A stretch of 64,000 nt of DNA from Cellulosilyticum lentocellum DSM 5427 (GTDB taxonomy: Bacteria; Bacillota; Clostridia; Lachnospirales; Cellulosilyticaceae): contig NC_015275.1 in assembly GCF_000178835.2 (NCBI RefSeq), forward strand, positions 4,493,001 to 4,557,000, given 5' to 3'. The translations under genes were made by a program, and so were the position numbers. This document shows, piece after piece, positions 1 through 61,356 of this stretch (positions are counted from its first letter, which is position 1; each line of letters begins with the position of its first letter). The notes beneath the pieces are model-generated. The model had not been told where the DNA came from. It saw nothing but the letters and a program-made list of their open reading frames with translations, and searched no databases.

Positions 1-77
1 ATTATGTATTTTTATTTGATCTTATCCTTCATTATAGATATAACGTAATTATACAATTGCTCTTATAAATAAAAATT

Positions 78-337
78 TGTCTTGGCGTTTATGAGAAGTA
101 CGTCTGAGAGAAAATGAGTGGGTATGGGTGCCTTTCGTTGTTCCGGTTCACATTTTTAGAAGCACTAAGTTCACTTATTTAGATGAACGGCAGAACTCGC
201 TTCGCTCAAACAGCTGCCTAAAACCCATCTAAAACGTTCACTAAGTGCTTCTAAAAAAATGTTCCCAAGTCACTACTCCAGGCACCCATACCCACTCATT
301 TTCACAAACGTTGTTGACCTCATAAACATCCAAGACA
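78..337. repeat. Giant imperfect palindrome, copy A
   Basis: The two halves of this 260-base stretch are reverse complements over several blocks. Outer blocks are TGTCTTGG (78-85) with CCAAGACA (330-337) and GTTTATGAG (87-95) with CTCATAAAC (319-327). A perfect 23-bp block pairs 111-133 with 280-302. Inner blocks pair 150-170 with 240-262 around AGAAGCACT. The apical stem is GGCAG (189-193) with CTGCC (214-218), closing a loop AACTCGCTTCGCTCAAACA (194-212). The core is repeated in inverted orientation at 489-684. I see no transposase or convincing reading frame. It could be a structured RNA, a MITE-like palindromic element or a DNA cruciform; the sequence alone does not decide. Confidence 0.85.
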
Positions 338-411
338 GTGAAGCAGCGTGGAAAGAAGGCGTAACGATAATAAAAAAACACTCAGAACCAAGGAAAAGAC
401 TAGAGCAATAA
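259..411 (+). other. Short open frame of unclear status beside palindrome A
   Basis: An ATG at 259 opens a 50-codon frame ending with TAA at 409-411. Its second half reads like real protein: NVVDLINIQDSEAAWKEG, then a basic, charged end KKHSEPRKRLEQ. The first half lies inside the right arm of the giant palindrome and no ribosome binding site precedes the ATG. It may be the tail of a gene broken by the palindrome, or chance. The rest of the gap between the palindromes (412-488) is AT-rich and shows nothing I recognise. Confidence 0.25.
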
Positions 412-488
412 CGTATTAAGTTTTCTTCTATTTTTATTTTTTTCTTGAAAACACTTCAGGAGAGTAACTTTGCGCGTTATTGTTGGTA

Positions 489-684
489 GAACTGAGAGAG
501 GGTGGCTGTCCTAGCGGGGTGACTTCGGAGTATTTTCAGTAGGCACTTAGCGAACGTTTTGGATGGTACTTAGCCCACGTGTTTGAGGGAAACGAGTTTG
601 TGGGCGTTCATCCAAATAAGTGAGCTTAGTGCCTACTGAAAATGCGGAGCGGAACCACGTAGGATAGTCACCCTCTCTCAGTTC
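489..684. repeat. Giant imperfect palindrome, copy B
   Basis: The outer stem is a perfect 16-bp match of 489-504 with 669-684 (GAACTGAGAGAGGGTG and its complement). A second perfect 16-bp block pairs 532-547 with 628-643 (ATTTTCAGTAGGCACT). The apical stem is CCCAC (574-578) with GTGGG (600-604). Read on the minus strand, the core matches copy A: GCACTAAG, then TCACTTATTT, then GATGAACG, then the apical loop ACTCG-TTTC-CTCAAACA. The outer arms differ completely between the copies, yet each is self-complementary. It lies about 90 bases beyond the eut operon terminator. Confidence 0.85.
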
Positions 685-772
685 CGCCCAAATAGCCTAG
701 TGAAGTTACCGATAAGTTTATTCCTTATTTATATTATAGCTCAATTTTCCCTTTAAAGCTGTTCTAAAATAA

Positions 773-818: not shown

Positions 819-1286
819 TTAAGCTTGTCCTGCCCAATCTGCTGGATAAGTTACATAAATAAATCTTGCATAATGAGGCACAGAGAACTTAATAACAGAA
901 CCTTTTGGTATAAGAATTAATTCTCCTGCATTGGCAGTTACAGTTTCCCCATTAATGATAATGCTTAAACTGCCTTCAATGACATAGTCTATTTCATCAT
1001 AGTTTAATGTCCAGTCAAAGGTAGTCGATTTCATTTCCATCACACCACAGCCTAACCTTGGGCTTTCTTGTAAGGTAAATAAATCTTTTGTATAAACTAT
1101 ATCAGCAGCCACGCCTGTATCAAGACGGTTACTTTCATCAACTTTTACAGTTGGCACCTTAACAGACATTACACCAGAAGAGGTTACTTGTCTTGAAAAG
1201 TCCACATGCTTGCAACTTCCTGCTCCTAGTTTTTCTACAATGATTTGTTTAATAAGTGTCTCTAAAGTTGAGCGATCTATATCCAT
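819..1286 (-). CDS. eutQ: EutQ, ethanolamine utilisation cupin protein
   Basis: The 155-residue protein is last in the eut operon. Residues 1-20 (MDIDRSTLETLIKQIIVEKL) form an amphipathic helix of the kind that targets cargo into bacterial microcompartments. The remainder is a single cupin barrel, with a PRLGCGVMEMKSTTFDW strand pair and the turn DYVIEGSLSIIINGE. Enterobacterial EutQ is longer (about 230 residues) with an extra N-terminal segment, and has been reported to have acetate kinase activity. Whether this short form does is unknown. The ATG directly abuts the eutH stop codon, so translation is probably coupled. Confidence 0.9.
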   Translation of the reverse strand: MDIDRSTLETLIKQIIVEKLGAGSCKHVDFSRQVTSSGVMSVKVPTVKVDESNRLDTGVAADIVYTKDLFTLQESPRLGCGVMEMKSTTFDWTLNYDEIDYVIEGSLSIIINGETVTANAGELILIPKGSVIKFSVPHYARFIYVTYPADWAGQA

Positions 1287-2378
1287 CTATGCCTTTTCCT
1301 TTCCAAGTGTTTTATTGGCAATAAACATAGCTACAATAATAGCTGTAATACCCCCTACTAACTTTCCTACTATCATAGGGAATATCATTTCTGGATTAAA
1401 GCCAGCGGTAAAACCTAGGTGATCTCCAAATACAAAAGCTGCAGATACTGCAAATGCAACATTTAGAATCTTCCCTCTTGCATCCATATCCTTCATCATG
1501 CCAAACATAGGAATACTATTAGCTAAACTCGCTACAAGGCCAGCTGCTCCCACATCATTCATTCCTAATACCTTTCCTAATTTCATTAGAGGTGTCTTAA
1601 AGACTTTCGTAATGACATACACTAATGGGAATGCACCAGCTAATACAATCGCAATGTCTGCTACAATAGTAAAACCTTCCGAAATAGGTGTCATACCAGG
1701 AATAATAACAATACCTGTAAGCTGCTCAATAATACCTAACGCAAGACCAAAGATAATAACAGCTACTACGAACTTTCCGAAGTAAGTAAAACCTTTAATC
1801 ATACCATTTTCAAAAAAGAATAGTCCTAAAGCGATAAGCACTGCAAAAATAATGATTGGAATAAGATTCATAATAACCATCATGATTGGAAAACCTGCTA
1901 CAAGTCCTCCCACAAAGGCACCTATAGGAATTGTAATAACCCCTGCTAGGACTCCTGTTGCCAAATATTTACGATCTGACTCTTCAATAATGCCTAGCCC
2001 TACTGGAATAGTAAATACAATTGTTGGCCCAAGCATAGCACCTACGATAAGGCCTCCAAATAGTCCTGCATTAGGATCTATAGCTAAAGCTTCAGCAAGA
2101 GGTGCTCCTCCCATATCATTTGCCAAAATAGAACCTGCAAACATAGCTGGGTCAGCCCCTAAAAATCCGAATAAAGGAACAATAACTGGCTTAAGTAGCT
2201 CTGCAATAACAGGTGCTAATGCTATAATACCAACCATAGATATGGCTAGTGTTCCTATAGCCATGATCCCTTCTTCAAACTTCTCTCCTAACCCGAACCG
2301 ATTACCTATAATTTTATCTATAGCTCCAAGCACTGCAAAAATCACCATGATATAAACAATGATTTCGTTTATACTCAT
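1287..2378 (-). CDS. eutH: EutH, ethanolamine permease
   Basis: This is a roughly 363-residue polytopic membrane protein of about ten helices, rich in Gly, Ile and Ala. It matches the EutH family that imports ethanolamine across the cytoplasmic membrane. Typical segments are FAGSILANDMGGAPLAEALA and GDHLGFTAGFNPEMI. An upstream in-frame ATG (2393) exists, but GGAGG sits 8 bases before the ATG at 2378, so the protein most likely starts MSINEIIVY. It sits between the PduT-like shell gene and eutQ. EutH is needed mainly when little ethanolamine is available, because the neutral form diffuses in. Confidence 0.93.
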   Translation of the reverse strand: MSINEIIVYIMVIFAVLGAIDKIIGNRFGLGEKFEEGIMAIGTLAISMVGIIALAPVIAELLKPVIVPLFGFLGADPAMFAGSILANDMGGAPLAEALAIDPNAGLFGGLIVGAMLGPTIVFTIPVGLGIIEESDRKYLATGVLAGVITIPIGAFVGGLVAGFPIMMVIMNLIPIIIFAVLIALGLFFFENGMIKGFTYFGKFVVAVIIFGLALGIIEQLTGIVIIPGMTPISEGFTIVADIAIVLAGAFPLVYVITKVFKTPLMKLGKVLGMNDVGAAGLVASLANSIPMFGMMKDMDARGKILNVAFAVSAAFVFGDHLGFTAGFNPEMIFPMIVGKLVGGITAIIVAMFIANKTLGKEKA

Positions 2379-2418
2379 AAAAAACGCCTCCATTTATTTG
2401 GATTATCATTAGATACTT

Positions 2419-2967
2419 TCAGATTAAGTATTTTTTAATCTCCTTACTGGGAGATGGAATAATAGCTGTATTGGAATACTCATTCTCACTTAATATGTTC
2501 TTAATTTCCAAGAAACCATATTCAATACTACTAACAGGACCTGTTATAGTAAAAACTAATCTGCCACTAATACATTGTGCTAATTGCATTTTAATAAGTC
2601 TAACATCACTAGCTTTTAAAACGCGGTCCAGTGCTACAATTCCCGTACAAACCTTATTAGTTTCTACAACACCTATTGCATCTATTATTTCCTTAGTTAC
2701 ATACTTATTTTTAAAAGCATCTATAATAACAGGAGATACTGCATGTAGTTTAAAACTATCTACTAAAATTCTAGCAACTTGGCTCTTTCCATGATCAATA
2801 GCCTCATCTACCGCGCCCTCATCTCCTGTTACAATAATTAAAAATTTACCAGGGCAAATGGTTCTACAATAAATAATTTCAACATTTGCCTTTTTTACTA
2901 TTTGGTCAGAAATCTCAATTCCTTTACTAATACTCCTAAATTCAAGTGCACCTATGCTTCTATTCAT
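2419..2967 (-). CDS. PduT-like tandem-BMC shell protein with Fe-S cysteine
   Basis: The 182-residue protein carries two bacterial microcompartment (BMC) domains in tandem (about 1-90 and 95-182), so it should form a trimeric pseudohexamer. The first domain contains TICPGKFLI with the cysteine at residue 38. In PduT, Cys38 in the same motif (CPGK) binds a 4Fe-4S cluster at the trimer centre and is thought to pass electrons across the shell. PduT belongs to propanediol (pdu) operons, so its presence among eut genes is unusual for the classical enteric system. Its start overlaps the eutN stop by 8 bases. Family assignment is strong; electron transfer is inference from the motif. Confidence 0.88.
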   Translation of the reverse strand: MNRSIGALEFRSISKGIEISDQIVKKANVEIIYCRTICPGKFLIIVTGDEGAVDEAIDHGKSQVARILVDSFKLHAVSPVIIDAFKNKYVTKEIIDAIGVVETNKVCTGIVALDRVLKASDVRLIKMQLAQCISGRLVFTITGPVSSIEYGFLEIKNILSENEYSNTAIIPSPSKEIKKYLI

Positions 2968-3235
2968 TTTCCTCTACCTCTATAGAATCCACTATACCAA
3001 CAACGGCTGAATCAATAGGACAATCCGGATTACCTACTGCATAACGTGCAGAACCACCTCTTACCACTAACACCAAATCACCTACTCCTGCACCAATAAT
3101 ATCTGCTGCTACAATAAGCTCTGGTTTTTCCTTTCCTTGTTCTAGAAGTATCTTAAGAACAAGGAATTTCTGACCATTTAACTGTTCATCCTTCTTAGTG
3201 GCCCATACACGCCCTATAACCCTGCCTATTTCCAT
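2960..3235 (-). CDS. eutN: EutN, pentameric vertex protein of the shell
   Basis: The 91-residue protein matches the EutN/CcmL family whose pentamers cap the vertices of microcompartments. It starts MEIGRVIGRVWATKK and contains the family features DIIGAGVGDLVLVVRGGSAR and a closing PIDSAVVGIVDSI strand. Length is typical. It overlaps the following PduT-like gene by 8 bases and lies 14 bases after the TIGR02536-type gene. No membrane segment or signal peptide is present. Confidence 0.93.
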   Translation of the reverse strand: MEIGRVIGRVWATKKDEQLNGQKFLVLKILLEQGKEKPELIVAADIIGAGVGDLVLVVRGGSARYAVGNPDCPIDSAVVGIVDSIEVEENE

Positions 3236-3249
3236 AGCTTCTGCATCTC

Positions 3250-3903
3250 CTATACTCTTTTAATCTCAATATGATGCTTTCGTATATAATCATCTGCTAG
3301 CGGGGTAATAATGCAGCCTTTTGAAATAGTAACACTACAAATTCCTTCAAGATGTTTCTTAATAAGGTCTGCCTCTAAAAGTAACTTTTTATAAGTCATA
3401 TCAAAGTTAACATTACCTGTAATGGGTTTTGGTGCTTTGTGATTATCTCTAGACTTTGCACTATTAAGTAATTCATCTAAATGACTAATACACTGAATAC
3501 CATAGTTTTTAATCTTATCTTCGTAATCCATTAAAAGTGTGTATAGAGCTTTATGCGCATTCTCTTTGTAACGCCTGTATTCTATACCTTCTTCTAGCAT
3601 ATAAACCTGTTTCTCATTTAAAAGAGCTTTTAATATAAGACTTTCCTCTTCTGTAACAGGCGAGCTAGTAGCTAAATGGCCTAGCATCTCTATAGTAAGC
3701 TTAGTAATTACTATCCCTTCATAGCTTTCCTCGCTATTCTTATAAACACTACACTTATAAGCTTGCTTTAAATACTTTAAACCTACATCGGGCATGGGGC
3801 CAATAAATATCAGCTTCTTTAATGAAGTTTGTTCATTACATTTATCCTCTAGCCTTTTATAAACTTCATTCAAAATTTCATCTATTAAGGTTTGACTGTA
3901 CAT
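3250..3903 (-). CDS. TIGR02536-type ethanolamine utilisation protein of unknown role
   Basis: The protein of about 217 residues is of the eut-associated hypothetical family found in Clostridia operons. The frame could open at 3921, but AAGGGGTGGGAGC immediately precedes the ATG at 3903, favouring the start MYSQTLIDE. The first 17 residues (MYSQTLIDEILNEVYKR) form an amphipathic helix like the encapsulation helices of EutC and EutQ. A Rossmann-like strand KKLIFIGPMPDVG follows. The last 25 residues (ISKGCIITPLADDYIRKHHI) resemble the N-terminal part of EutT two genes upstream (ITPSARAYLLEKGIEM). The function is not known; a luminal partner of EutT is only a guess. Confidence 0.8.
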   Translation of the reverse strand: MYSQTLIDEILNEVYKRLEDKCNEQTSLKKLIFIGPMPDVGLKYLKQAYKCSVYKNSEESYEGIVITKLTIEMLGHLATSSPVTEEESLILKALLNEKQVYMLEEGIEYRRYKENAHKALYTLLMDYEDKIKNYGIQCISHLDELLNSAKSRDNHKAPKPITGNVNFDMTYKKLLLEADLIKKHLEGICSVTISKGCIITPLADDYIRKHHIEIKRV

Positions 3904-3922
3904 GCTCCCACCCCTTCTCATC

Positions 3923-4546
3923 TTATTTAATAATCATACCTAAGGTGCCTTTAGTAAAACCACATGCATTGGCTTCATCATAGTCAATATGGATATATGT
4001 TCTAAAATCCTTACTTACACGTACTACTAAATCATCAAAGATGAGTGGTCTTACTCCAAAAACTTTTACTTTCACAATCTCACCATCTGTTACATGGAAC
4101 CTATTTGCATCCTCTGGGGTAATATGCATATGCCTTTTAGCTACAATAAGTCCTTGTGAAAGCTTTACCTGCTTATCTCCATTACTTATTGTAATCTCAG
4201 GTGTTCCTGTAATATCTCCACTTTGCCTAATAGGTGCTTTAATTCCTAGAACTAGGGCATCTGTTAGAGAAATTTCTACCTGAGATGCTTTTCTTTCTGG
4301 ACCTAATACTACTACATTTTTCAAAGTTCCCTTGGGCCCAGAAATCGTAACACGTTCAGCAGAGGCATATTGTCCTGGCTGAGATAATTCCTTCACAGGT
4401 GTAAGCTTATAGCCTACACCAAATAATGTATCTATATCTTGTCTCGAAAGATGCACGTGTCTACCGGAAGCTTCTACTTCAATAAATAATTGCTTTTTTA
4501 AGGCTTGTACTATGGTGTCTACTAATTGGTCTACTGATGCTGACAT
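3923..4546 (-). CDS. pduL: PduL-type phosphotransacetylase (EutD role)
   Basis: The 207-residue protein is of the PduL family, unrelated in fold to classical Pta/EutD. It interconverts acetyl-CoA plus phosphate with acetyl phosphate plus CoA. The two zinc-binding histidine motifs are visible: SGRHVHLSRQDID near residue 27 and AKRHMHITPEDANRF near residue 135. Residues 1-20 (MSASVDQLVDTIVQALKKQL) are an amphipathic helix expected to target it into the microcompartment, where it recycles CoA for EutE. It sits between eutT and the TIGR02536-type gene. Confidence 0.93.
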   Translation of the reverse strand: MSASVDQLVDTIVQALKKQLFIEVEASGRHVHLSRQDIDTLFGVGYKLTPVKELSQPGQYASAERVTISGPKGTLKNVVVLGPERKASQVEISLTDALVLGIKAPIRQSGDITGTPEITISNGDKQVKLSQGLIVAKRHMHITPEDANRFHVTDGEIVKVKVFGVRPLIFDDLVVRVSKDFRTYIHIDYDEANACGFTKGTLGMIIK

Positions 4547-4595
4547 ATAATCTCCCTTCTCTATACTGTATTTATTCCATTAGCTTTAAAAAAAT

Positions 4596-5363
4596 TTATA
4601 CGTTAGCTTTATATTTGCCTGCTAAGTATTTAAACATCATAACCCAGAATAATGAGGATAAACGGTTTAAAGACTTAATAATATCTTCTCTGCTCACTTG
4701 CCCATACTCGTCTTTAAAAGCTTTATAGGCAATAAGCTCTGTTTGACGTGTTAAAGTCCTCAGTTTATTAAGATAAGCTACCATTTCTCCTTGTTTATAA
4801 TGAGGTAAAAAATGCTTGATACCATAATATTTGCTTGGATGATGGGAGTGTTCTCTAAGTTCTTTAGCATCTAGACCTTGCAGCGTAAATTCACCTATTG
4901 GTTCACCACACACTTCATTTCTTAATAACCTTCTAATGAACTTAATAATTTCTTCAAGGTCTGCTATTATCTGTGGCAAATGCTCTTTTTCTGCAAAAAT
5001 CTGTGTCATAACTATTTCTGCTTCTAAGCTATCTATCGCACCTCTAAAAACAATGCGAGGATGATCTTTGAATACCAATAGATTGTCTCTAAGGTGTGTC
5101 ATATGCTCAGGTTTTTCATTTAATTTAGCACCAAACATAGTCTCATAAACCTCTGTTCGATCGCTTGCCATCTGCTCTTCACTCACCTTTGTCACTTCTC
5201 CTATGAGATTATCCTCTATCTTCATTTCAATACCTTTTTCTAATAAATAAGCTCTAGCTGAAGGTGTAATAATTTTATTACGTGGTACAACTATTTGACC
5301 CTTTTCTTTTAGCTGTCCACTTGCAAGCATTTGCCTTACATCATTTTCTGTTAATACGGACAC
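4596..5363 (-). CDS. eutT: EutT, corrinoid adenosyltransferase
   Basis: The 255-residue protein makes adenosylcobalamin, the cofactor of EutBC, from cobalamin and ATP. It matches the EutT family along its length: an N-terminal ITPSARAYLLEKGIEM segment, then KPEHMTHLRDNLLV, HPRIVFRGAIDSLEAEIV, and a helical C-terminal domain with LNRLSSLFWVMMFK. The HX11CCX2C metal motif of the Salmonella enzyme is missing: the equivalent stretch (EVYETMFGAKLNEKPEHMTH) has no cysteine. That places it with metal-free forms known from other Firmicutes. It is followed by pduL and preceded by a 117-base gap containing a strong hairpin. Confidence 0.9.
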   Translation of the reverse strand: MSVLTENDVRQMLASGQLKEKGQIVVPRNKIITPSARAYLLEKGIEMKIEDNLIGEVTKVSEEQMASDRTEVYETMFGAKLNEKPEHMTHLRDNLLVFKDHPRIVFRGAIDSLEAEIVMTQIFAEKEHLPQIIADLEEIIKFIRRLLRNEVCGEPIGEFTLQGLDAKELREHSHHPSKYYGIKHFLPHYKQGEMVAYLNKLRTLTRQTELIAYKAFKDEYGQVSREDIIKSLNRLSSLFWVMMFKYLAGKYKANV

Positions 5364-5409
5364 TTATTCACCTTCTTGCCCTATAATATAGTCTGCTACC
5401 TTGTTATAG

Positions 5410-5447
5410 AAAGAGGTTACCTAGATATAACTCTAGGTATCCTCTTT
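5410..5447 (-). other. Strong hairpin in the eutM-eutT gap
   Basis: AAAGAGG, one mismatch, then TACCTAGA (5410-5425) pairs with TCTAGGTA, one mismatch, then CCTCTTT (5432-5447), giving about 15 bp with a 6-base loop. On the coding (minus) strand it is followed by CTATAAC, not a T-run, so it is more likely an mRNA stabiliser or leaky terminator than a full stop. It lies just after eutM, the gene for the major shell protein, which must be made in large excess. Confidence 0.6.
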
Positions 5448-5480
5448 TTGCCCTTAAAGGACCCTTCCTATAGGAGCGTC

Positions 5481-5771
5481 TTATGCTTGTGCATGACTAT
5501 GTGGCAAGATAACGTCAACTTCTGAATGAGGTCTTGGAATAACATGCACAGAGATGAGTTCGCCTACTCTTTCTGCTGCTGCTGCTCCTGCATCTGTAGC
5601 TGCTTTTACAGCACCCACATCTCCTCTTACCATAACAGTTACAAGGCCACCTCCAATTTGCTCTTTACCAACTAAAGCAACATTGGCTGCTTTTACCATT
5701 GCATCAGCTGCTTCAATTGCGCCAACTAAACCTTTTGTTTCAATCATTCCTAATGCATTTGTATTTGCCAT
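5481..5771 (-). CDS. eutM: EutM, major hexameric shell protein
   Basis: The 96-residue single-BMC-domain protein starts [20 protein letters not shown] and contains the pore-loop [20 protein letters not shown] and the family end [15 protein letters not shown]. It should tile the flat facets of the microcompartment as hexamers. The AGGAGG site is 7 bases before ATG. Hairpins on both sides (a 6-bp stem at 5794-5813 upstream, and 5410-5447 downstream) isolate it in the transcript, which fits selective stabilisation. Confidence 0.95.
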
Positions 5772-5840
5772 TTTATTTTCCTCCTATAAAGTATAGTGTC
5801 ATCTATTACACTACATCCTTAGTATTCTACTTTTCGCTAA

Positions 5841-7316
5841 TTATATTAACTCTTTCATAATCCTTCTTACGATTTCATCTACTAAATTCTTCTCACAACA
5901 GCTATTACCAATATTTGACGAAGAACAACCAACTCCGGCTTCTTGTCTCAATGTTTCTATTTCCTTTATTCCATAAGCCACGCGCCTAATATTAATAAGA
6001 TCCATAGGGCCAATGTTATTAGAGGATGAGCTACCACCTACTGCACCACAACCTAAGGTAAGTGCTGGGAATAAGTTAGTTGTACCACCAACACCACCTA
6101 ATGAACCCATGGTATTAACTAAAATACGTGATGCTGGAATATGGAGTGAAAAATGTTTTACTAGCTCCTCATCATTAGCATGCATACAGAAAGTATGTCC
6201 TTTTCCTTCTAAATGAAGGATTTCTTGTGATTTCTTAAGCACAGCATCTACATTTTCTTCTACATAAAAGGCAAGGATAGGTGCTAACTTTTCTCTTGAA
6301 TAAGGATATTCATGACCAACATTTATTTCCCTTCCAATCAGTACACGCGCTGCACTTGGTACTTTAGTAAGTCCTGCTAGTTTAGCAATGTGTTCTACAC
6401 TCTTTCCTACAATTTGAGGGTTCATTGTACCATTGGCCCTTAGGATAAACCTGGCTAGTTGTTTATTTTCTTGTTCGTCTAAGAAATAGCCACCTTGAGC
6501 TTTAAACTCAGCAATTACTTTTTCTTCCATACATCTTTCAACGATGACAGATTGTTCTGAAGCACAAATGGTACCATTATCAAATGTCTTGGAATCTATA
6601 ATGCGTTTAACAGCTAATTTAACATCTGCACTTTTATCAATAAAAGCTGGTCCATTTCCTGCACCTACTCCAATAGCTGGCGTTCCTGAAGAATAAGCAG
6701 ATTTTACCATACCCGGTCCACCAGTTGCTAAAATCAGTTTAGTATTAGGATGTTTCATAAGCTCTTGTGTTGCATGTAAAGTTGGAAGCGTAATAGTGGA
6801 GATTGCTCCTTTTGGACAACCTGCTGCTTCTGCTGCTCTTGTTAATATATCTACTGTTTCTTTAATACAGTTTCTCGCACTTGGGTGTGGAGAAAAAACA
6901 ATACAGCTACCTGCTTTAATGGAAATAAGTGTTTTGTACATAATTGTAGAAGTAGGGTTAGTAGATGGTACAATCCCTGCAATAACCCCTACAGGTACAC
7001 CTATATCTAAGATTTTTTCTTCTTTGTTGTCTCTTAAAATACCAATTGTCTTTTGATCTTTGATAGCTTCATAAATACCTTTTGATCCAAAGATATTTTT
7101 GATTACTTTATCTTGCCAACGTCCAAAACCTGTTTCTTCATTTGCCATCTTTGCTAACTTTTCAGCATTGGCAGCTCCTGCATCTGCAATAGCTTTTACA
7201 ATCTTATCGATTTGACATTGACTAAAGGTAGATAATACCTCTTGCGCTTTTTGTGCTTCTATTAAAAGGTTTCTAACCTCTTGAATGGATTGTAAGTCTT
7301 TATCTATTAGTTCCAT
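5841..7316 (-). CDS. eutE: EutE, CoA-acylating acetaldehyde dehydrogenase
   Basis: The 491-residue enzyme oxidises acetaldehyde with NAD and CoA to acetyl-CoA inside the microcompartment. The catalytic cysteine is in the TFDNGTICASEQSVIV segment (near residue 250), and the NAD-binding aldehyde dehydrogenase fold spans most of the protein (GVPVGVIAGIVPSTNPTST). It lacks the N-terminal targeting helix of enteric EutE. Instead the last 17 residues (EKNLVDEIVRRIMKELI), after a Cys/Ser/Gly linker, form the same kind of amphipathic helix, as in several other acylating dehydrogenases of microcompartments. AAGGAGG precedes the ATG. Confidence 0.95.
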   Translation of the reverse strand: MELIDKDLQSIQEVRNLLIEAQKAQEVLSTFSQCQIDKIVKAIADAGAANAEKLAKMANEETGFGRWQDKVIKNIFGSKGIYEAIKDQKTIGILRDNKEEKILDIGVPVGVIAGIVPSTNPTSTIMYKTLISIKAGSCIVFSPHPSARNCIKETVDILTRAAEAAGCPKGAISTITLPTLHATQELMKHPNTKLILATGGPGMVKSAYSSGTPAIGVGAGNGPAFIDKSADVKLAVKRIIDSKTFDNGTICASEQSVIVERCMEEKVIAEFKAQGGYFLDEQENKQLARFILRANGTMNPQIVGKSVEHIAKLAGLTKVPSAARVLIGREINVGHEYPYSREKLAPILAFYVEENVDAVLKKSQEILHLEGKGHTFCMHANDEELVKHFSLHIPASRILVNTMGSLGGVGGTTNLFPALTLGCGAVGGSSSSNNIGPMDLINIRRVAYGIKEIETLRQEAGVGCSSSNIGNSCCEKNLVDEIVRRIMKELI

Positions 7317-7352
7317 TGGGGCCTCCTTACTTAGTTGTCATCTATAGTTTGT

Positions 7353-7919
7353 TTATTTTCTAGCCTCAGTTATCATCTTAATCAGCTCTGACTTTTTAGC
7401 TTCTTTTAATTGCTTGATAGGCACATTGATCCCCAAAGCCTTAATAAGTGCTCTCAGCTCAGTATTACTTTTTTTACTAAGGTCCTCAGCACTTACTATG
7501 TCTTCAGTAGTACTCTCTTCTAATTTTGAATCTGTATCTGTGCTTAATATACTCGGCTCCTGAGGCACTGTATACTCTAAGTTATCTGGTGCTGCTTGCT
7601 GTTTTAGTCGGCCTTCCTCACTGTTTTTCTTATTAGCTTTGATAGTACTTGATTGTATAACTTTTCCAATCAGGCTTTCATCTACCCTTGGAATAACATG
7701 AGTTGCCCTAACCTTACCAATTCTCTCAGCTGCTTCACCACCTGCTTGTACTGCTGCTGTGATTGCTCCTACATCTCCAAAAAGTTGTACTGTCATAATG
7801 CCGCTGCCAACCTTTGACACACCACTTAGTTGAACATTAGAAGCTTTTAATGCGGCATCCGCTGCTTCTATTGCAGCAGGATATCCGATTACTTCTATAA
7901 GGCCTAGTGCTTGCATCAT
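7353..7919 (-). CDS. EutK-like shell protein with SAP/Rho-N-like tail
   Basis: Residues 1-90 of this 188-residue protein are a BMC shell domain (ALGLIEVIGYPAAIEAAD, SGIMTVQLFGDVGAI, ATHVIPRVDE). A charged, low-complexity linker of about 55 residues follows. The last 40 residues, LSKKSNTELRALIKALGINV then KELKEAKKSELIKMI-like helices, resemble the small helix-extended-loop-helix SAP/Rho N-terminal fold that binds nucleic acids. Enteric EutK also joins a BMC domain to a DNA-binding-like domain, but a different one (helix-turn-helix). Its start touches the eutL stop. The BMC call is certain; nucleic-acid binding is inference. Confidence 0.87.
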   Translation of the reverse strand: MMQALGLIEVIGYPAAIEAADAALKASNVQLSGVSKVGSGIMTVQLFGDVGAITAAVQAGGEAAERIGKVRATHVIPRVDESLIGKVIQSSTIKANKKNSEEGRLKQQAAPDNLEYTVPQEPSILSTDTDSKLEESTTEDIVSAEDLSKKSNTELRALIKALGINVPIKQLKEAKKSELIKMITEARK

Positions 7920-7920
7920 C

Positions 7921-8574
7921 TTAATAATCCCTTGGGTTATCTGCTACAGCTTTTATAGCTTCAGCAAATGCAGCACATGCGGCATGACATGCAGATTGAG
8001 TTCCTGTGAGCAGTCCTCCGCCAAAGTTTGTCTCCGAAGGTGGCCCAAAGAATTCCACTAATTTTACATCTGCCGCTTTCATTGCAGCATCAAGTCCATA
8101 TATCGCTTCCATTGGAGGAGCAATTAAATAAGCAAGTGGCTCCCCTTCTTCAACACCTGCTACCTTAGACAGATATGAACCTGTACGAGATACTGTATGC
8201 GCATAATAGACAATAGAATCATCTTCGTTAGCACTTATAAAACAAGCATCTGACCCAAAAAAGTCTAAAGCAGCTTTAAGACCACTTCTTACCTCTGCTG
8301 GGCTTGGTCCACCAATAATACCAATCACTTCACCTGCTAGTTTTGTAGAAGCATTACCTGCTCCTGCATACATAGAACGTGCATACACGACTTCAACATC
8401 TGCATCTTTAGTGGCTTCATCTAATGCAGTATACGTCACATCATCACTGTCAGCTGTGATGATTCCTATACTTTTATGCTTTGGTCCTAATTCTAATTTT
8501 GCTGCAAGCTCTGGACTAACATTGGAAATGACACGCACACCAAGTACATTAGCTCGCACTTTATCGTTTTTCAT
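7921..8574 (-). CDS. eutL: EutL, trimeric tandem-BMC shell protein
   Basis: The 217-residue protein matches EutL, a circularly permuted tandem-BMC trimer with a gated central pore thought to pass ethanolamine or larger cofactors. Recognisable stretches are ANVLGVRVISNVSPELA, VVYARSMYAGAGNAST and FGPPSETNFGGGLLTGTQSA. Length is typical of the family. It is followed immediately by the EutK-like gene and preceded by eutC at a distance of 15 bases. Confidence 0.95.
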   Translation of the reverse strand: MKNDKVRANVLGVRVISNVSPELAAKLELGPKHKSIGIITADSDDVTYTALDEATKDADVEVVYARSMYAGAGNASTKLAGEVIGIIGGPSPAEVRSGLKAALDFFGSDACFISANEDDSIVYYAHTVSRTGSYLSKVAGVEEGEPLAYLIAPPMEAIYGLDAAMKAADVKLVEFFGPPSETNFGGGLLTGTQSACHAACAAFAEAIKAVADNPRDY

Positions 8575-60876: not shown

Positions 60877-61140
60877 AGCCCTCATCCTTTAACTATGTAA
60901 AGGACGAGAGCTGATATCCCGCGTTACCACCTTTTTTTGCTATTATCTCACGATAATAACCTCTTCAAGTACGTTAGCCACAAAGCTAATTATACTCTAG
61001 CACGATAACGGGTGCACTACCGTTTGCTTCTACTTAAGTTTATACTTGTTTGAAGCAACACTCCAAGATGTATTCAAATAAGCATCTTCTTGCCCCTCTC
61101 ACCTACCGGGAACTCTCTGTTAGCCTAGCTTATTCTACTT
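60877..61140 (-). promoter_or_regulatory. T-box leader of the symporter gene
   Basis: On the minus strand the leader has AGAGAG (near 61113) at the start of stem I, a stem with AAGATG/CATCTT arms, a stem III (AACGG/CCGTT), and the diagnostic T-box AGGTGGTAACGCGG (complement at 60919-60932). The terminator AGCTCTCGTCCTTTA pairs with TAAAGGATGAGGGCT (60877-60891 with 60898-60912) and is followed by TTTTTT. Uncharged tRNA should pair with the T-box bulge, form the antiterminator and turn the gene on. Confidence 0.93.
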
Positions 61141-61356
61141 CTTCTTTTCTACGCTTTGTATTATCAGTATAATTATATATTCTATTCTAAATTTTTTCAA
61201 TACATAAAATTGTACATATTAATCAAATTTATTATTTATTAATTAAAAATTTTTGTTACTTTTATTCGAAATCTGTTTGACTTTTATTTATAAACTTAAT
61301 ATTATTGAATTATAAATCATCCTACATATGCACTTTATTAAAAGGAGGCCACTAAC

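What the first reader, a model, noticed from the sequence alone, without database searches (positions are those of the whole stretch)
78..684. Two giant palindromes share a core and show compensatory stem changes
Copies at 78-337 and 489-684 lie in inverted orientation and share the apical motif (A)ACTCG-TTC-CTCAAACA. The stem closing that motif is GGCAG/CTGCC in one copy and CCCAC/GTGGG in the other: sequence changed, pairing kept. The outer arms are unrelated between copies, but each is nearly perfectly self-complementary (23 bp and 16+16 bp). Covariation in two of two copies suggests selection on a folded RNA or DNA structure with a conserved tip, not a simple sequence repeat. It could be an undescribed structured RNA family, a palindromic mobile element or a recombination site.
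Basis: seen in the sequence. Interest (0 to 1): 0.78.

Follow-up and report, generated by a model that had tools for sequence, protein, structure and literature searches.

The report
Twin giant hairpins sharing one tip
The two huge palindromes are the opposite ends of one small mobile DNA element, and the same hairpin tip, on otherwise different stems, turns up in distantly related bacteria, so it is probably a signal that some enzyme reads on folded single-stranded DNA.

Summary
Palindromes A (78-337) and B (489-684) are the inverted ends of one non-coding element (about 67-725) with short terminal inverted repeats. A covariance model finds 46 such hairpin cores in the host loci searched, dispersed with sharp ends and unrelated flanks, so the element is mobile. 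All share an apical core: a variable stem, TGTTTGA, a 2-bp mini-hairpin with mostly a GNA triloop, GAGTT. The stems covary. The tip recurs in clostridia, several proteobacterial classes, Nitrospirales and prophages, mostly on long palindromes with unrelated arms. Neighbouring hairpins within 700 bp face outward in 46 of 54 pairs. No Rfam family reached threshold over the elements searched. I read it as a REPIN-like element acting as folded single-stranded DNA, served in trans. Best candidate enzyme: a long HUH Y1 protein (RAYT subclass 2.1-like), in 8 of 9 hairpin-positive and 2 of 15 negative genomes of the host family, and in 10 of 10 betaproteobacteria checked. But 6 of 20 positive clostridial genomes have no Y1 protein and no hairpin was found beside the Y1 genes checked, so the enzyme is unproven. 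New variant of a known kind.

The parts
67..725 (.). whole non-autonomous element (left terminal repeat, palindrome A, spacer, palindrome B, decayed right terminal repeat)
   Evidence: ends set by alignment with other genomic copies whose flanks are unrelated; right end in this copy is decayed, so 725 is approximate
67..81 (+). left terminal inverted repeat AAATAAAAATTTGTC (consensus AAATAGAAATTTGTC)
   Evidence: 1 mismatch; 18 other two-ended elements carry it at both ends with at most 3 mismatches
78..337 (-). giant palindrome A; the TGTTTGAG strand is the minus strand
   Evidence: alignment of 15 A copies
183..228 (-). apical core of A (P1 foot, TTAG, P2 GGCAG/CTGCC, tip mini-hairpin GC-GAA-GC, CGTTC)
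   Evidence: model R1 match L094:8184-8229, E 3.4e-14
194..212 (+). shared apical motif as first reported
338..488 (.). spacer between the palindromes; variable between copies, replaced by a stretch with a 450-nt unit X in longer copies
489..684 (+). giant palindrome B; the TGTTTGAG strand is the plus strand
   Evidence: alignment of 13 B copies (two of them with the middle deleted)
563..611 (+). apical core of B (P2 GCCCAC/GTGGGC, tip GG-GAA-AC, one pair broken in this copy)
   Evidence: model R1 match L094:8564-8612, E 8.3e-15
711..725 (-). decayed right terminal inverted repeat (9 of 15 positions fit GACAAATTTCTATTT, counted by eye)
   Evidence: alignment of B copies

Best explanation
The two palindromes are the inverted ends of one short, protein-free mobile element. 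Each end folds, as single-stranded DNA, into a giant hairpin that displays a conserved cap (variable stem P2, TGTTTGA, a 2-bp mini-hairpin with mostly a GNA triloop, GAGTT). The likeliest enzyme is a HUH Y1 protein of the long RAYT type (subclass 2.1-like, with a DnaA-like or HTH tail). Shown: dispersal, ends, twin inverted architecture, covariation, strand bias of wobble pairs, cross-phylum tip. Inferred: action on DNA and not RNA, trans mobilisation, the identity of the enzyme.
For: Dispersal with sharp ends and unrelated flanks; 46 model matches at E 6e-8 or better in the 35 host loci given, in 31 clusters. Terminal inverted repeats at both ends of 18 elements besides the window copy, and no direct repeat seen by eye at their flanks, as expected of single-strand mechanisms (recalled). 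Covariation: 87.6% of cells paired against 68.2% in shuffles, 84 double-change cells against 27.3. Tip outer pair left free by the search: GC 88, AT 9, GT 1, AC 1 in the GTDB loci. Twin outward orientation in 46 of 54 pairs within 700 bp, 10 of 10 in the host. More G.T wobble on the TGTTTGAG strand in 57 of 82 untied subfamilies, in line with the strand-specific reading known for TnpA_REP (passages of PMC8266576). REPs of three enterobacteria carry a GCGNAGC tip (passages of PMC2817692). Long, profile-spanning Y1 protein in 8 of 9 hairpin-positive and 2 of 15 negative genomes of the host family. A Y1 protein in 10 of 10 hairpin-positive betaproteobacteria; in 200 genomes of the order of the Undibacterium one, 97 have a match at E 1e-10 and 25 at E 1e-65.
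Against: Six of the 20 hairpin-positive clostridial genomes given have no Y1 domain at E 0.01, among them G338 with 14 tips and the single-contig genome G411 with 6; both Marinobacter and 2 of 3 Vibrio genomes lack it too. Across 371 clostridial genomes the long Y1 type occurs in 10 of 20 genomes with three or more tips and in 112 of 351 others, a weak link. No R1 match lies in 30 loci around Y1 genes, unlike classical REPtrons, and no GTAG foot is present. G002, hairpin-negative, has a partial Y1 match in a 374-aa frame; counting it gives 3 of 15. In 7 of 10 loci read the Y1 gene has the same neighbour, so it is inherited by descent and co-occurrence is confounded. One of five covariation measures (further pair types, 17 against 20.5) does not exceed the shuffles. 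Wobble bias is about even in G014, G019 and the rest. No autonomous element was found and no transposase-like family among the 25 largest neighbour clusters. Covariation could arise partly from quasi-palindrome correction.
Confidence: 0.55

Rival explanations
1. A miniature inverted-repeat element (MITE) of an ordinary DDE-type transposon: the 15-bp terminal repeats are what the transposase sees, and the giant palindromes are incidental, kept perfect by quasi-palindrome correction during replication.
For: Clear terminal inverted repeats at both ends of 18 elements besides the window copy and sizes of 129-1268 bp. Correction between arms would make paired changes without selection.
Against: No target-site duplication seen by eye. 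No parent transposon noticed in the host genome searches. The letters outside the stems are the conserved part and cross phyla, and the TIR is not seen in G014 and G019, whose hairpins end differently.
Confidence: 0.2
2. A structured RNA element, for instance a 3' end processing or attenuation hairpin, that has spread within genomes.
For: Covariation and wobble bias on one strand are also what an RNA would give; the hairpins lie mostly between ORFs.
Against: No Rfam family reached its threshold. The two hairpins of a twin face opposite ways, so a single transcript holds only one TGTTTGAG copy. In tandem gene pairs both orientations occur. The GC-GNA-GC mini-hairpin is recalled to be exceptionally stable as DNA.
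Confidence: 0.15
3. A folded single-strand recombination or replication site that is read by a host or integrase protein other than a Y1 enzyme, such as an attC-like site, a single-strand promoter or a primase start.
For: In five Vibrio loci the tip caps a palindrome that starts TAACAA and ends GCGTTA or GYGTTGA, like an attC site; L129, L135 and L169 hold 4, 5 and 3 further attC-like sites on the same strand, L143 and the 874-base L193 none by that filter. The tip occurs in genomes without a detected Y1 protein and in prophage contigs. The motif behaves as a portable cap on unrelated stems.
Against: No integrase-like family stood out among the 25 largest neighbour clusters (names are my reading). 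A host function does not explain dispersal with sharp ends and twin inverted symmetry.
Confidence: 0.25

Closest known systems
REP / REPIN elements with RAYT (TnpA_REP) HUH Y1 transposases
   Same: non-coding, mostly intergenic, multi-copy palindromes; inverted doublets; strand-specific single-strand hairpin; some REPs carry a GCGNAGC tip; a RAYT-like gene in many of the genomes
   Different: about 160-340 bp (upper value limited by the fold window) and not 20-40 bp; no GTAG foot (TTAG in the host and some clostridia); not found next to the Y1 gene; same tip across phyla; some genomes have no Y1 gene
TIRYT / TnpA_Y1 subclass 2.1 and its flanking terminal inverted repeats (Di Nocera 2013, PMC3733652, passages; Quentin 2018, PMC6006769, abstract, passages, section 20)
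   Same: long Y1 protein with HTH or Bac_DnaA_C tail; some published TIRs are partly or wholly self-complementary, form repeat families and occur as dimers or clusters; the 2018 survey found no REP-like sequence near subclass 2.1 genes
   Different: the published repeats flank the gene and many share GGGGWSAS; our hairpins do not flank the gene in the loci checked and are defined by the tip. I could not compare with their sequences, which are in figures
MITEs
   Same: short, protein-free, terminal inverted repeats, dispersed
   Different: no target-site duplication seen, no parent transposon noticed, sub-terminal giant hairpins with a cross-phylum tip
integron attC sites
   Same: long imperfect palindromes read as folded single-stranded DNA; five Vibrio loci have attC-like sites with this tip
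   Different: host-genome copies are dispersed and have other ends

Membership tests
REP/REPIN | short (20-40 bp) imperfect palindrome | tested here: not met
   hairpins span about 160-340 bp; only the apical core is REP-sized
REP/REPIN | GTAG (or GTGG) tetranucleotide at the 5' foot | tested here: not met
   TTAG, not GTAG, before P2 in 30 of 30 unique host cores, 19 of 50 other clostridial, 6 of 91 GTDB and 6 of 20 viral ones; GTAG not scanned systematically at the outer foot, none seen in the aligned G014/G019 ends
REP/REPIN | inverted doublet as mobile unit | tested here: met
   46 of 54 neighbouring pairs within 700 bp are - then +; 4 ++, 3 +-, 1 --; in G014 and G610 most hairpins read are single
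REP/REPIN | RAYT gene flanked by the repeat (REPtron) | tested here: not met
   no R1 match at E 0.1 in 30 loci around Y1 genes; in 19 loci scanned with a loose pattern (2 of them also) 5 gave matches, none with the 19-base tip form; flanks of at most 1.5 kb
REP/REPIN | resident RAYT-type protein in the genome | tested here: inconclusive
   8 of 9 versus 2 of 15 in the host family; 10 of 10 betaproteobacteria; absent from 6 of 20 clostridial positives, 2 of 2 Marinobacter and 2 of 3 Vibrio
TnpA_Y1 subclass 2.1 (for the candidate enzyme) | HUH and Y motif plus C-terminal HTH/Bac_DnaA_C domain | tested here: inconclusive
   HxH and Y-I-H-x-N-P invariant in 10 aligned proteins; Bac_DnaA_C only below the Pfam cut-off, in 2 of 4; REP_Tyr_transpos below its cut-off in 4 of 4
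MITE | terminal inverted repeats | tested here: met
MITE | target-site duplication | tested here: not met
   none seen by eye at the flanks of the 18 elements whose two ends were set correctly
MITE | autonomous parent with the same ends | tested here: inconclusive
   no convincing ORF in the nine copies read; TIR-plus-arm matches fall on known clusters or are chance-like, but were not read one by one
integron attC | cassette array with attC boxes | tested here: inconclusive
   5 of 5 Vibrio sites have TAACAA and GYGTTR ends; 3 of 5 loci show further attC-like sites; not tested for the host copies
Rfam RNA families | score at or above a curated threshold | tested here: not met
   window, 6 host loci, 18 other loci: no family over the hairpins. 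Below threshold: 7 matches over 1-800 at E up to 10 (best E 0.21) and 8 over one longer element at E up to 1 (best E 0.0026, a microRNA family at 30 of 249 bits)

The most novel reading that the evidence does not exclude
A phylum-crossing class of giant twin DNA hairpins, defined by one near-universal single-strand cap (TGTTTGA, mini-hairpin with mostly a GNA loop, GAGTT) on freely changing stems, is the nucleic-acid substrate of the long Y1 (subclass 2.1) HUH proteins, near whose genes a broad survey found no REP-like sequence (PMC6006769), and it has lent its tip to integron attC sites and prophages.
Probability: 0.25. Interest if true: 0.85.

Novelty: new variant of a known kind. Interest (0 to 1): 0.62.

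Why it matters
REP-type elements are described as short and tied to one lineage's transposase. Here the same cap sits on hairpins several times longer, in bacteria of several phyla and in phage and integron contexts. If a single protein family reads the cap, this gives a direct binding and cleavage test for a large class of HUH proteins near whose genes REP-like sequences were sought and not found (PMC6006769). If no such protein exists, some other factor must read it, which would be more surprising still. It also bears on how very long palindromes survive in bacterial chromosomes.

Tried and rejected
Rejected or led nowhere. (1) A skipping-rope RNA, recalled as a lead: no such match in Rfam; the paper search gave two listings, neither opened. 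(2) Tip strings in print: none of 6 found in the paper library, none with the first palindrome query; a query on long inverted-repeat families listed one unrelated paper; a mini-hairpin query listed aptamer, biosensor and nucleic-acid-drug papers (listing only). (3) An autonomous copy in the host genome: nine stretches of longer or odd copies read, no convincing ORF. (4) Empty sites: the 729707 and 3189160 copies proved to be a 2-kb duplication; the X-tail flank looks like an old arrangement, not an empty site. (5) Plasmid relatives: 4 records, none covering 80% of the query. (6) A mobilising gene beside the hairpins: ORFs of 100 aa or more within 2.5 kb, 25 largest clusters shown; by my reading these were genes of homologous phage contigs, common families such as an ABC transporter, syntenic genes of one species, and ORFs running through the element; no family search was made on them. 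(7) A loose tip scan gave 471 mostly false hits and was not used. (8) A regex with a wrong gap gave 0 and was redone. (9) More than half of the viral-contig matches are not giant palindromes: 42 of 111 had 25 or more enclosing pairs.

Limits of the counts. The GTDB set was drawn by a pattern that fixes GAACG and most of the tip, so its tip conservation, and CGTT beside it, is built in; only the R/Y pair and N were free. The hairpin scan uses a loose tip. Copies within a genome are related, and two GTDB loci (L154, L160) overlap loci also counted under G005 and G019, so p-values for orientation and wobble are too small. Scored candidates were capped per genome, so copy numbers are lower bounds. 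The hairpin status of the 200 genomes is unknown. The output was cut; I saw part of the 82 folds.

Full report
What is in the window. Palindromes A (78-337) and B (489-684) are present as described, and the stretch folds far better than 20 shuffles (z -14.4). The shared tip AACTCGNTTCNCTCAAACA is at 194-212 (+) and 580-598 (-). Its other strand reads TGTTTGAG; I call this the TGTTTGAG strand. It is the minus strand in A and the plus strand in B.

One element, many copies. The host genome is one 4,714,237-base contig. That the host is C. lentocellum is my recall of its genome size. The tip pattern with up to 2 mismatches occurs 31 times against 8 for the reversed control. Fifteen A copies and thirteen B copies align with sharp ends and unrelated flanks, save one pair that lies in a 2-kb duplication. 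The outer ends carry the inverted repeat AAATAGAAATTTGTC. In two-ended elements one end is A or a third type C and the other B, C or A-like, in inverted orientation. Of the 19 two-ended elements listed I had set one right end wrongly (the window copy); in the other 18, of 129-1268 bp, I saw no direct repeat at the two flanks by eye.

The conserved core. Forty-three unique cores from the host, G005, G014, G019 and other clostridial loci align as ATGG, three bases, TTAG, stem P2, TGTTTGA, stem P3 of 2 bp with a triloop, GAGTT(T), P2', CGTTCAT, with a few departures. On the structure given, 87.6% of cells pair against 68.2% in shuffles and 20.6-56.3% in slid versions; 84 cells have changes on both sides against 27.3; the number of further pair types (17) does not exceed the shuffles (20.5); P3 pairs in 97.7% of cells. 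The alignment shifts P2 in the shorter cores, so its 76.9% is an underestimate. P3 comes as GC/GC, AC/GT, GG/CC, CC/GG, CT/AG, AT/AT and GT/AC. In some G017 and G019 copies a longer hairpin takes the place of the tip loop between the same flanks (L255-L258). Model R1 finds 46 cores at E 6e-8 or better in the 35 host loci given, and two weaker ones; the 46 lie in 31 clusters.

How far it reaches. In 295 genomes of the order, 14 have an R1 match at E 0.001, 9 of them among the 24 genomes of the host family; the 5 others are weak, though the hairpins fetched from four of them (G056, G078, G163, G245) and from G170 fold as long palindromes. One scan of a GTDB collection with a tip pattern gave 82 stretches, in Vibrio, Marinobacter, Undibacterium, Herminiimonas, Noviherbaspirillum, Herbaspirillum, Oxalicibacterium, Ralstonia, Desulfuromonadales, Nitrospirales, Selenomonas, Lachnospiraceae, Ruminococcus and a few others. 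In 74 of the 82 loci there is a tip hairpin with at least 45 enclosing pairs; L132 and L203 are examples that do not look palindromic. In 371 clostridial genomes the looser tip TGTYTGANNGNANNGAGTT occurs in 56, three or more times in 20; the reversed control never exceeds one per strand. Prophage contigs hold giant hairpins with it too: 42 of 111 matches have 25 or more enclosing pairs. In five Vibrio loci the tip sits on an attC-like palindrome, and three of these loci hold further attC-like sites. In the P3 pair that the GTDB pattern left free, GC 88 and AT 9 stand against GT 1 and AC 1; in the viral matches GC 61, AT 4, GT 1, AC 1. TTAG before P2 is in 30 of 30 unique host cores and 19 of 50 other clostridial ones but in 6 of 91 GTDB and 6 of 20 viral cores, so it is not universal; GNA triloops are in 19 of 30, 46 of 50, 85 of 91 and 18 of 20 (the GTDB figure is built into the pattern).

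Architecture. Of 54 neighbouring hairpin pairs within 700 bp, 46 are - then +, 4 ++, 3 +- and 1 --; the host gives 10 of 10. Up to 2 kb the counts are 57, 11, 8 and 9. The outward twin is found in host, Undibacterium, Herminiimonas, Ralstonia, Selenomonas and Marinobacter loci among others. Some twins enclose a whole ORF (L251, L190). In G014 and G610 most hairpins read are single. The TGTTTGAG strand holds more G.T (G.U) pairs than its complement in 40 of 42 host hairpins, 12 of 14 in G008 and 69 of 101 in the GTDB loci, but about evenly in G014 (6 to 5), G019 (2 to 3), G005 (4 to 2) and the rest (6 to 4). By subfamily it is 57 against 25 with 8 ties, of which 15 to 0 in the host and 26 to 16 in the GTDB loci. 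This suggests that the folded TGTTTGAG strand is what counts.

What could read it. REP sequences are processed as single strands, in a strand-specific way, by TnpA_REP (RAYT) enzymes of the HUH Y1 class (passages of PMC8266576). Three enterobacterial REPs in a table of PMC2817692 have a GCGNAGC tip (passages). I therefore searched for Y1 proteins. In the host family, Y1 matches that span the profile and lie in an open frame of 226 aa or more occur in 8 of 9 hairpin-positive genomes (not G017) and 2 of 15 negative ones (G001, G006) (hypergeometric p about 5e-4 by hand). A partial match in a 374-aa frame of negative G002 would make it 3 of 15 (p about 2e-3). There is one such gene per genome, two in G012. 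In 7 of 10 loci read the gene lies beside the same 380-aa ORF, which looks to me like a spore-germination lipoprotein, so descent confounds the link. They score below the curated cut-off for REP_Tyr_transpos in 4 of 4 and weakly for Bac_DnaA_C in 2 of 4, like subclass 2.1 of PMC6006769 (abstract, passages and section 20 read), near whose genes neither automatic nor manual searches found REP-like sequences. PMC3733652 (passages) called such proteins TIRYT and reports that some of their terminal repeats are self-complementary and form repeat families; its sequences are in figures that I could not see. In 18 named hairpin-positive genomes, all 10 betaproteobacteria hold a Y1 protein: nine of 233-304 aa and one cut by a contig end, with a second weak match in two; Vibrio 1 of 3, Marinobacter 0 of 2, both Selenomonas only short IS200-like copies, and C. 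ruminicola a 226-aa one. They are homologous to the clostridial long type (for Undibacterium to the other betaproteobacterial ones). The base rate in 200 genomes of the order of the Undibacterium genome is 97 at E 1e-10 and 25 at E 1e-65. Against this, 6 of the 20 hairpin-positive clostridial genomes given have no Y1 match. In 371 genomes the long type is in 10 of 20 with three or more tips and 112 of 351 others, although in 8 of 10 with nine or more. No hairpin core was found within 1.5 kb of the Y1 genes examined.

Reading. I take the element to be DNA that works like a REPIN, with the cap as the recognition signal. That it is mobile, by its dispersal, and that the cap is conserved while stems change is shown. 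That the folded form is DNA, and that a Y1 protein acts on it, is inference; the second is no more than a good candidate. It is not a REP by membership: length, foot and REPtron tests fail. It is not a typical MITE either. Quasi-palindrome correction can produce matched arms without selection, but would not by itself conserve the unpaired letters across phyla.

In print, as far as searched. Tip strings: none in the library. Repeat-family and mini-hairpin queries: listings without a fitting paper. RAYT literature: listings, of which three papers were opened in part besides PMC2817692. Subscription papers are not in that library, so the absence is only of that library and those words.

Noticed in passing
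L064:8250-8700 (host C1:364251-364699) and 9 more places listed: A 450-nt non-coding unit X, with 9 further host copies 89-95% identical, sits between the palindromes of longer elements, beside them or alone; no Rfam family at threshold, no clear ORF. Two partial copies share the same internal deletion.
   Followed up: partly
host genome C1, 0.74-3.06 Mb: All 37 element clusters lie in the origin-proximal half, the origin placed by GC skew at 13 sampled loci; the empty arc is 2.32 Mb (49%), chance about 1e-9 for uniform independent placement.
   Followed up: partly
L129, L135, L143, L169, L193: Vibrio palindromes that start TAACAA, end GYGTTR and carry the same tip; three of the loci hold further attC-like sites.
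   Followed up: partly
L144 1-3011: A 3,011-base contig whose two ends repeat the same hairpin, so it may be a circular DNA of about 2.9 kb with a twin hairpin and several ORFs.
   Followed up: no
L190:6195-7078 and L251:1143-2720: Twin hairpins enclosing a whole gene or gene pair: two small ORFs that look like a toxin-antitoxin pair, and a 371-aa ORF that looks like an aminopeptidase (names are my reading).
   Followed up: no
L255, L256, L257, L258: Tip loop replaced by a longer hairpin while the TGTTTGAGC and GCGAGTTT flanks stay.
   Followed up: no
host C1:728151-730132 and 3187604-3189568: A 2-kb duplicated stretch, 97% identical, that ends inside the element.
   Followed up: no
window 60897-61160 (-): T-box leader at 121.6 bits.
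   Followed up: no
window 819-8574: Run of minus-strand genes that reads like an ethanolamine or propanediol microcompartment operon (my reading of the ORFs), starting just beyond the element.
   Followed up: no
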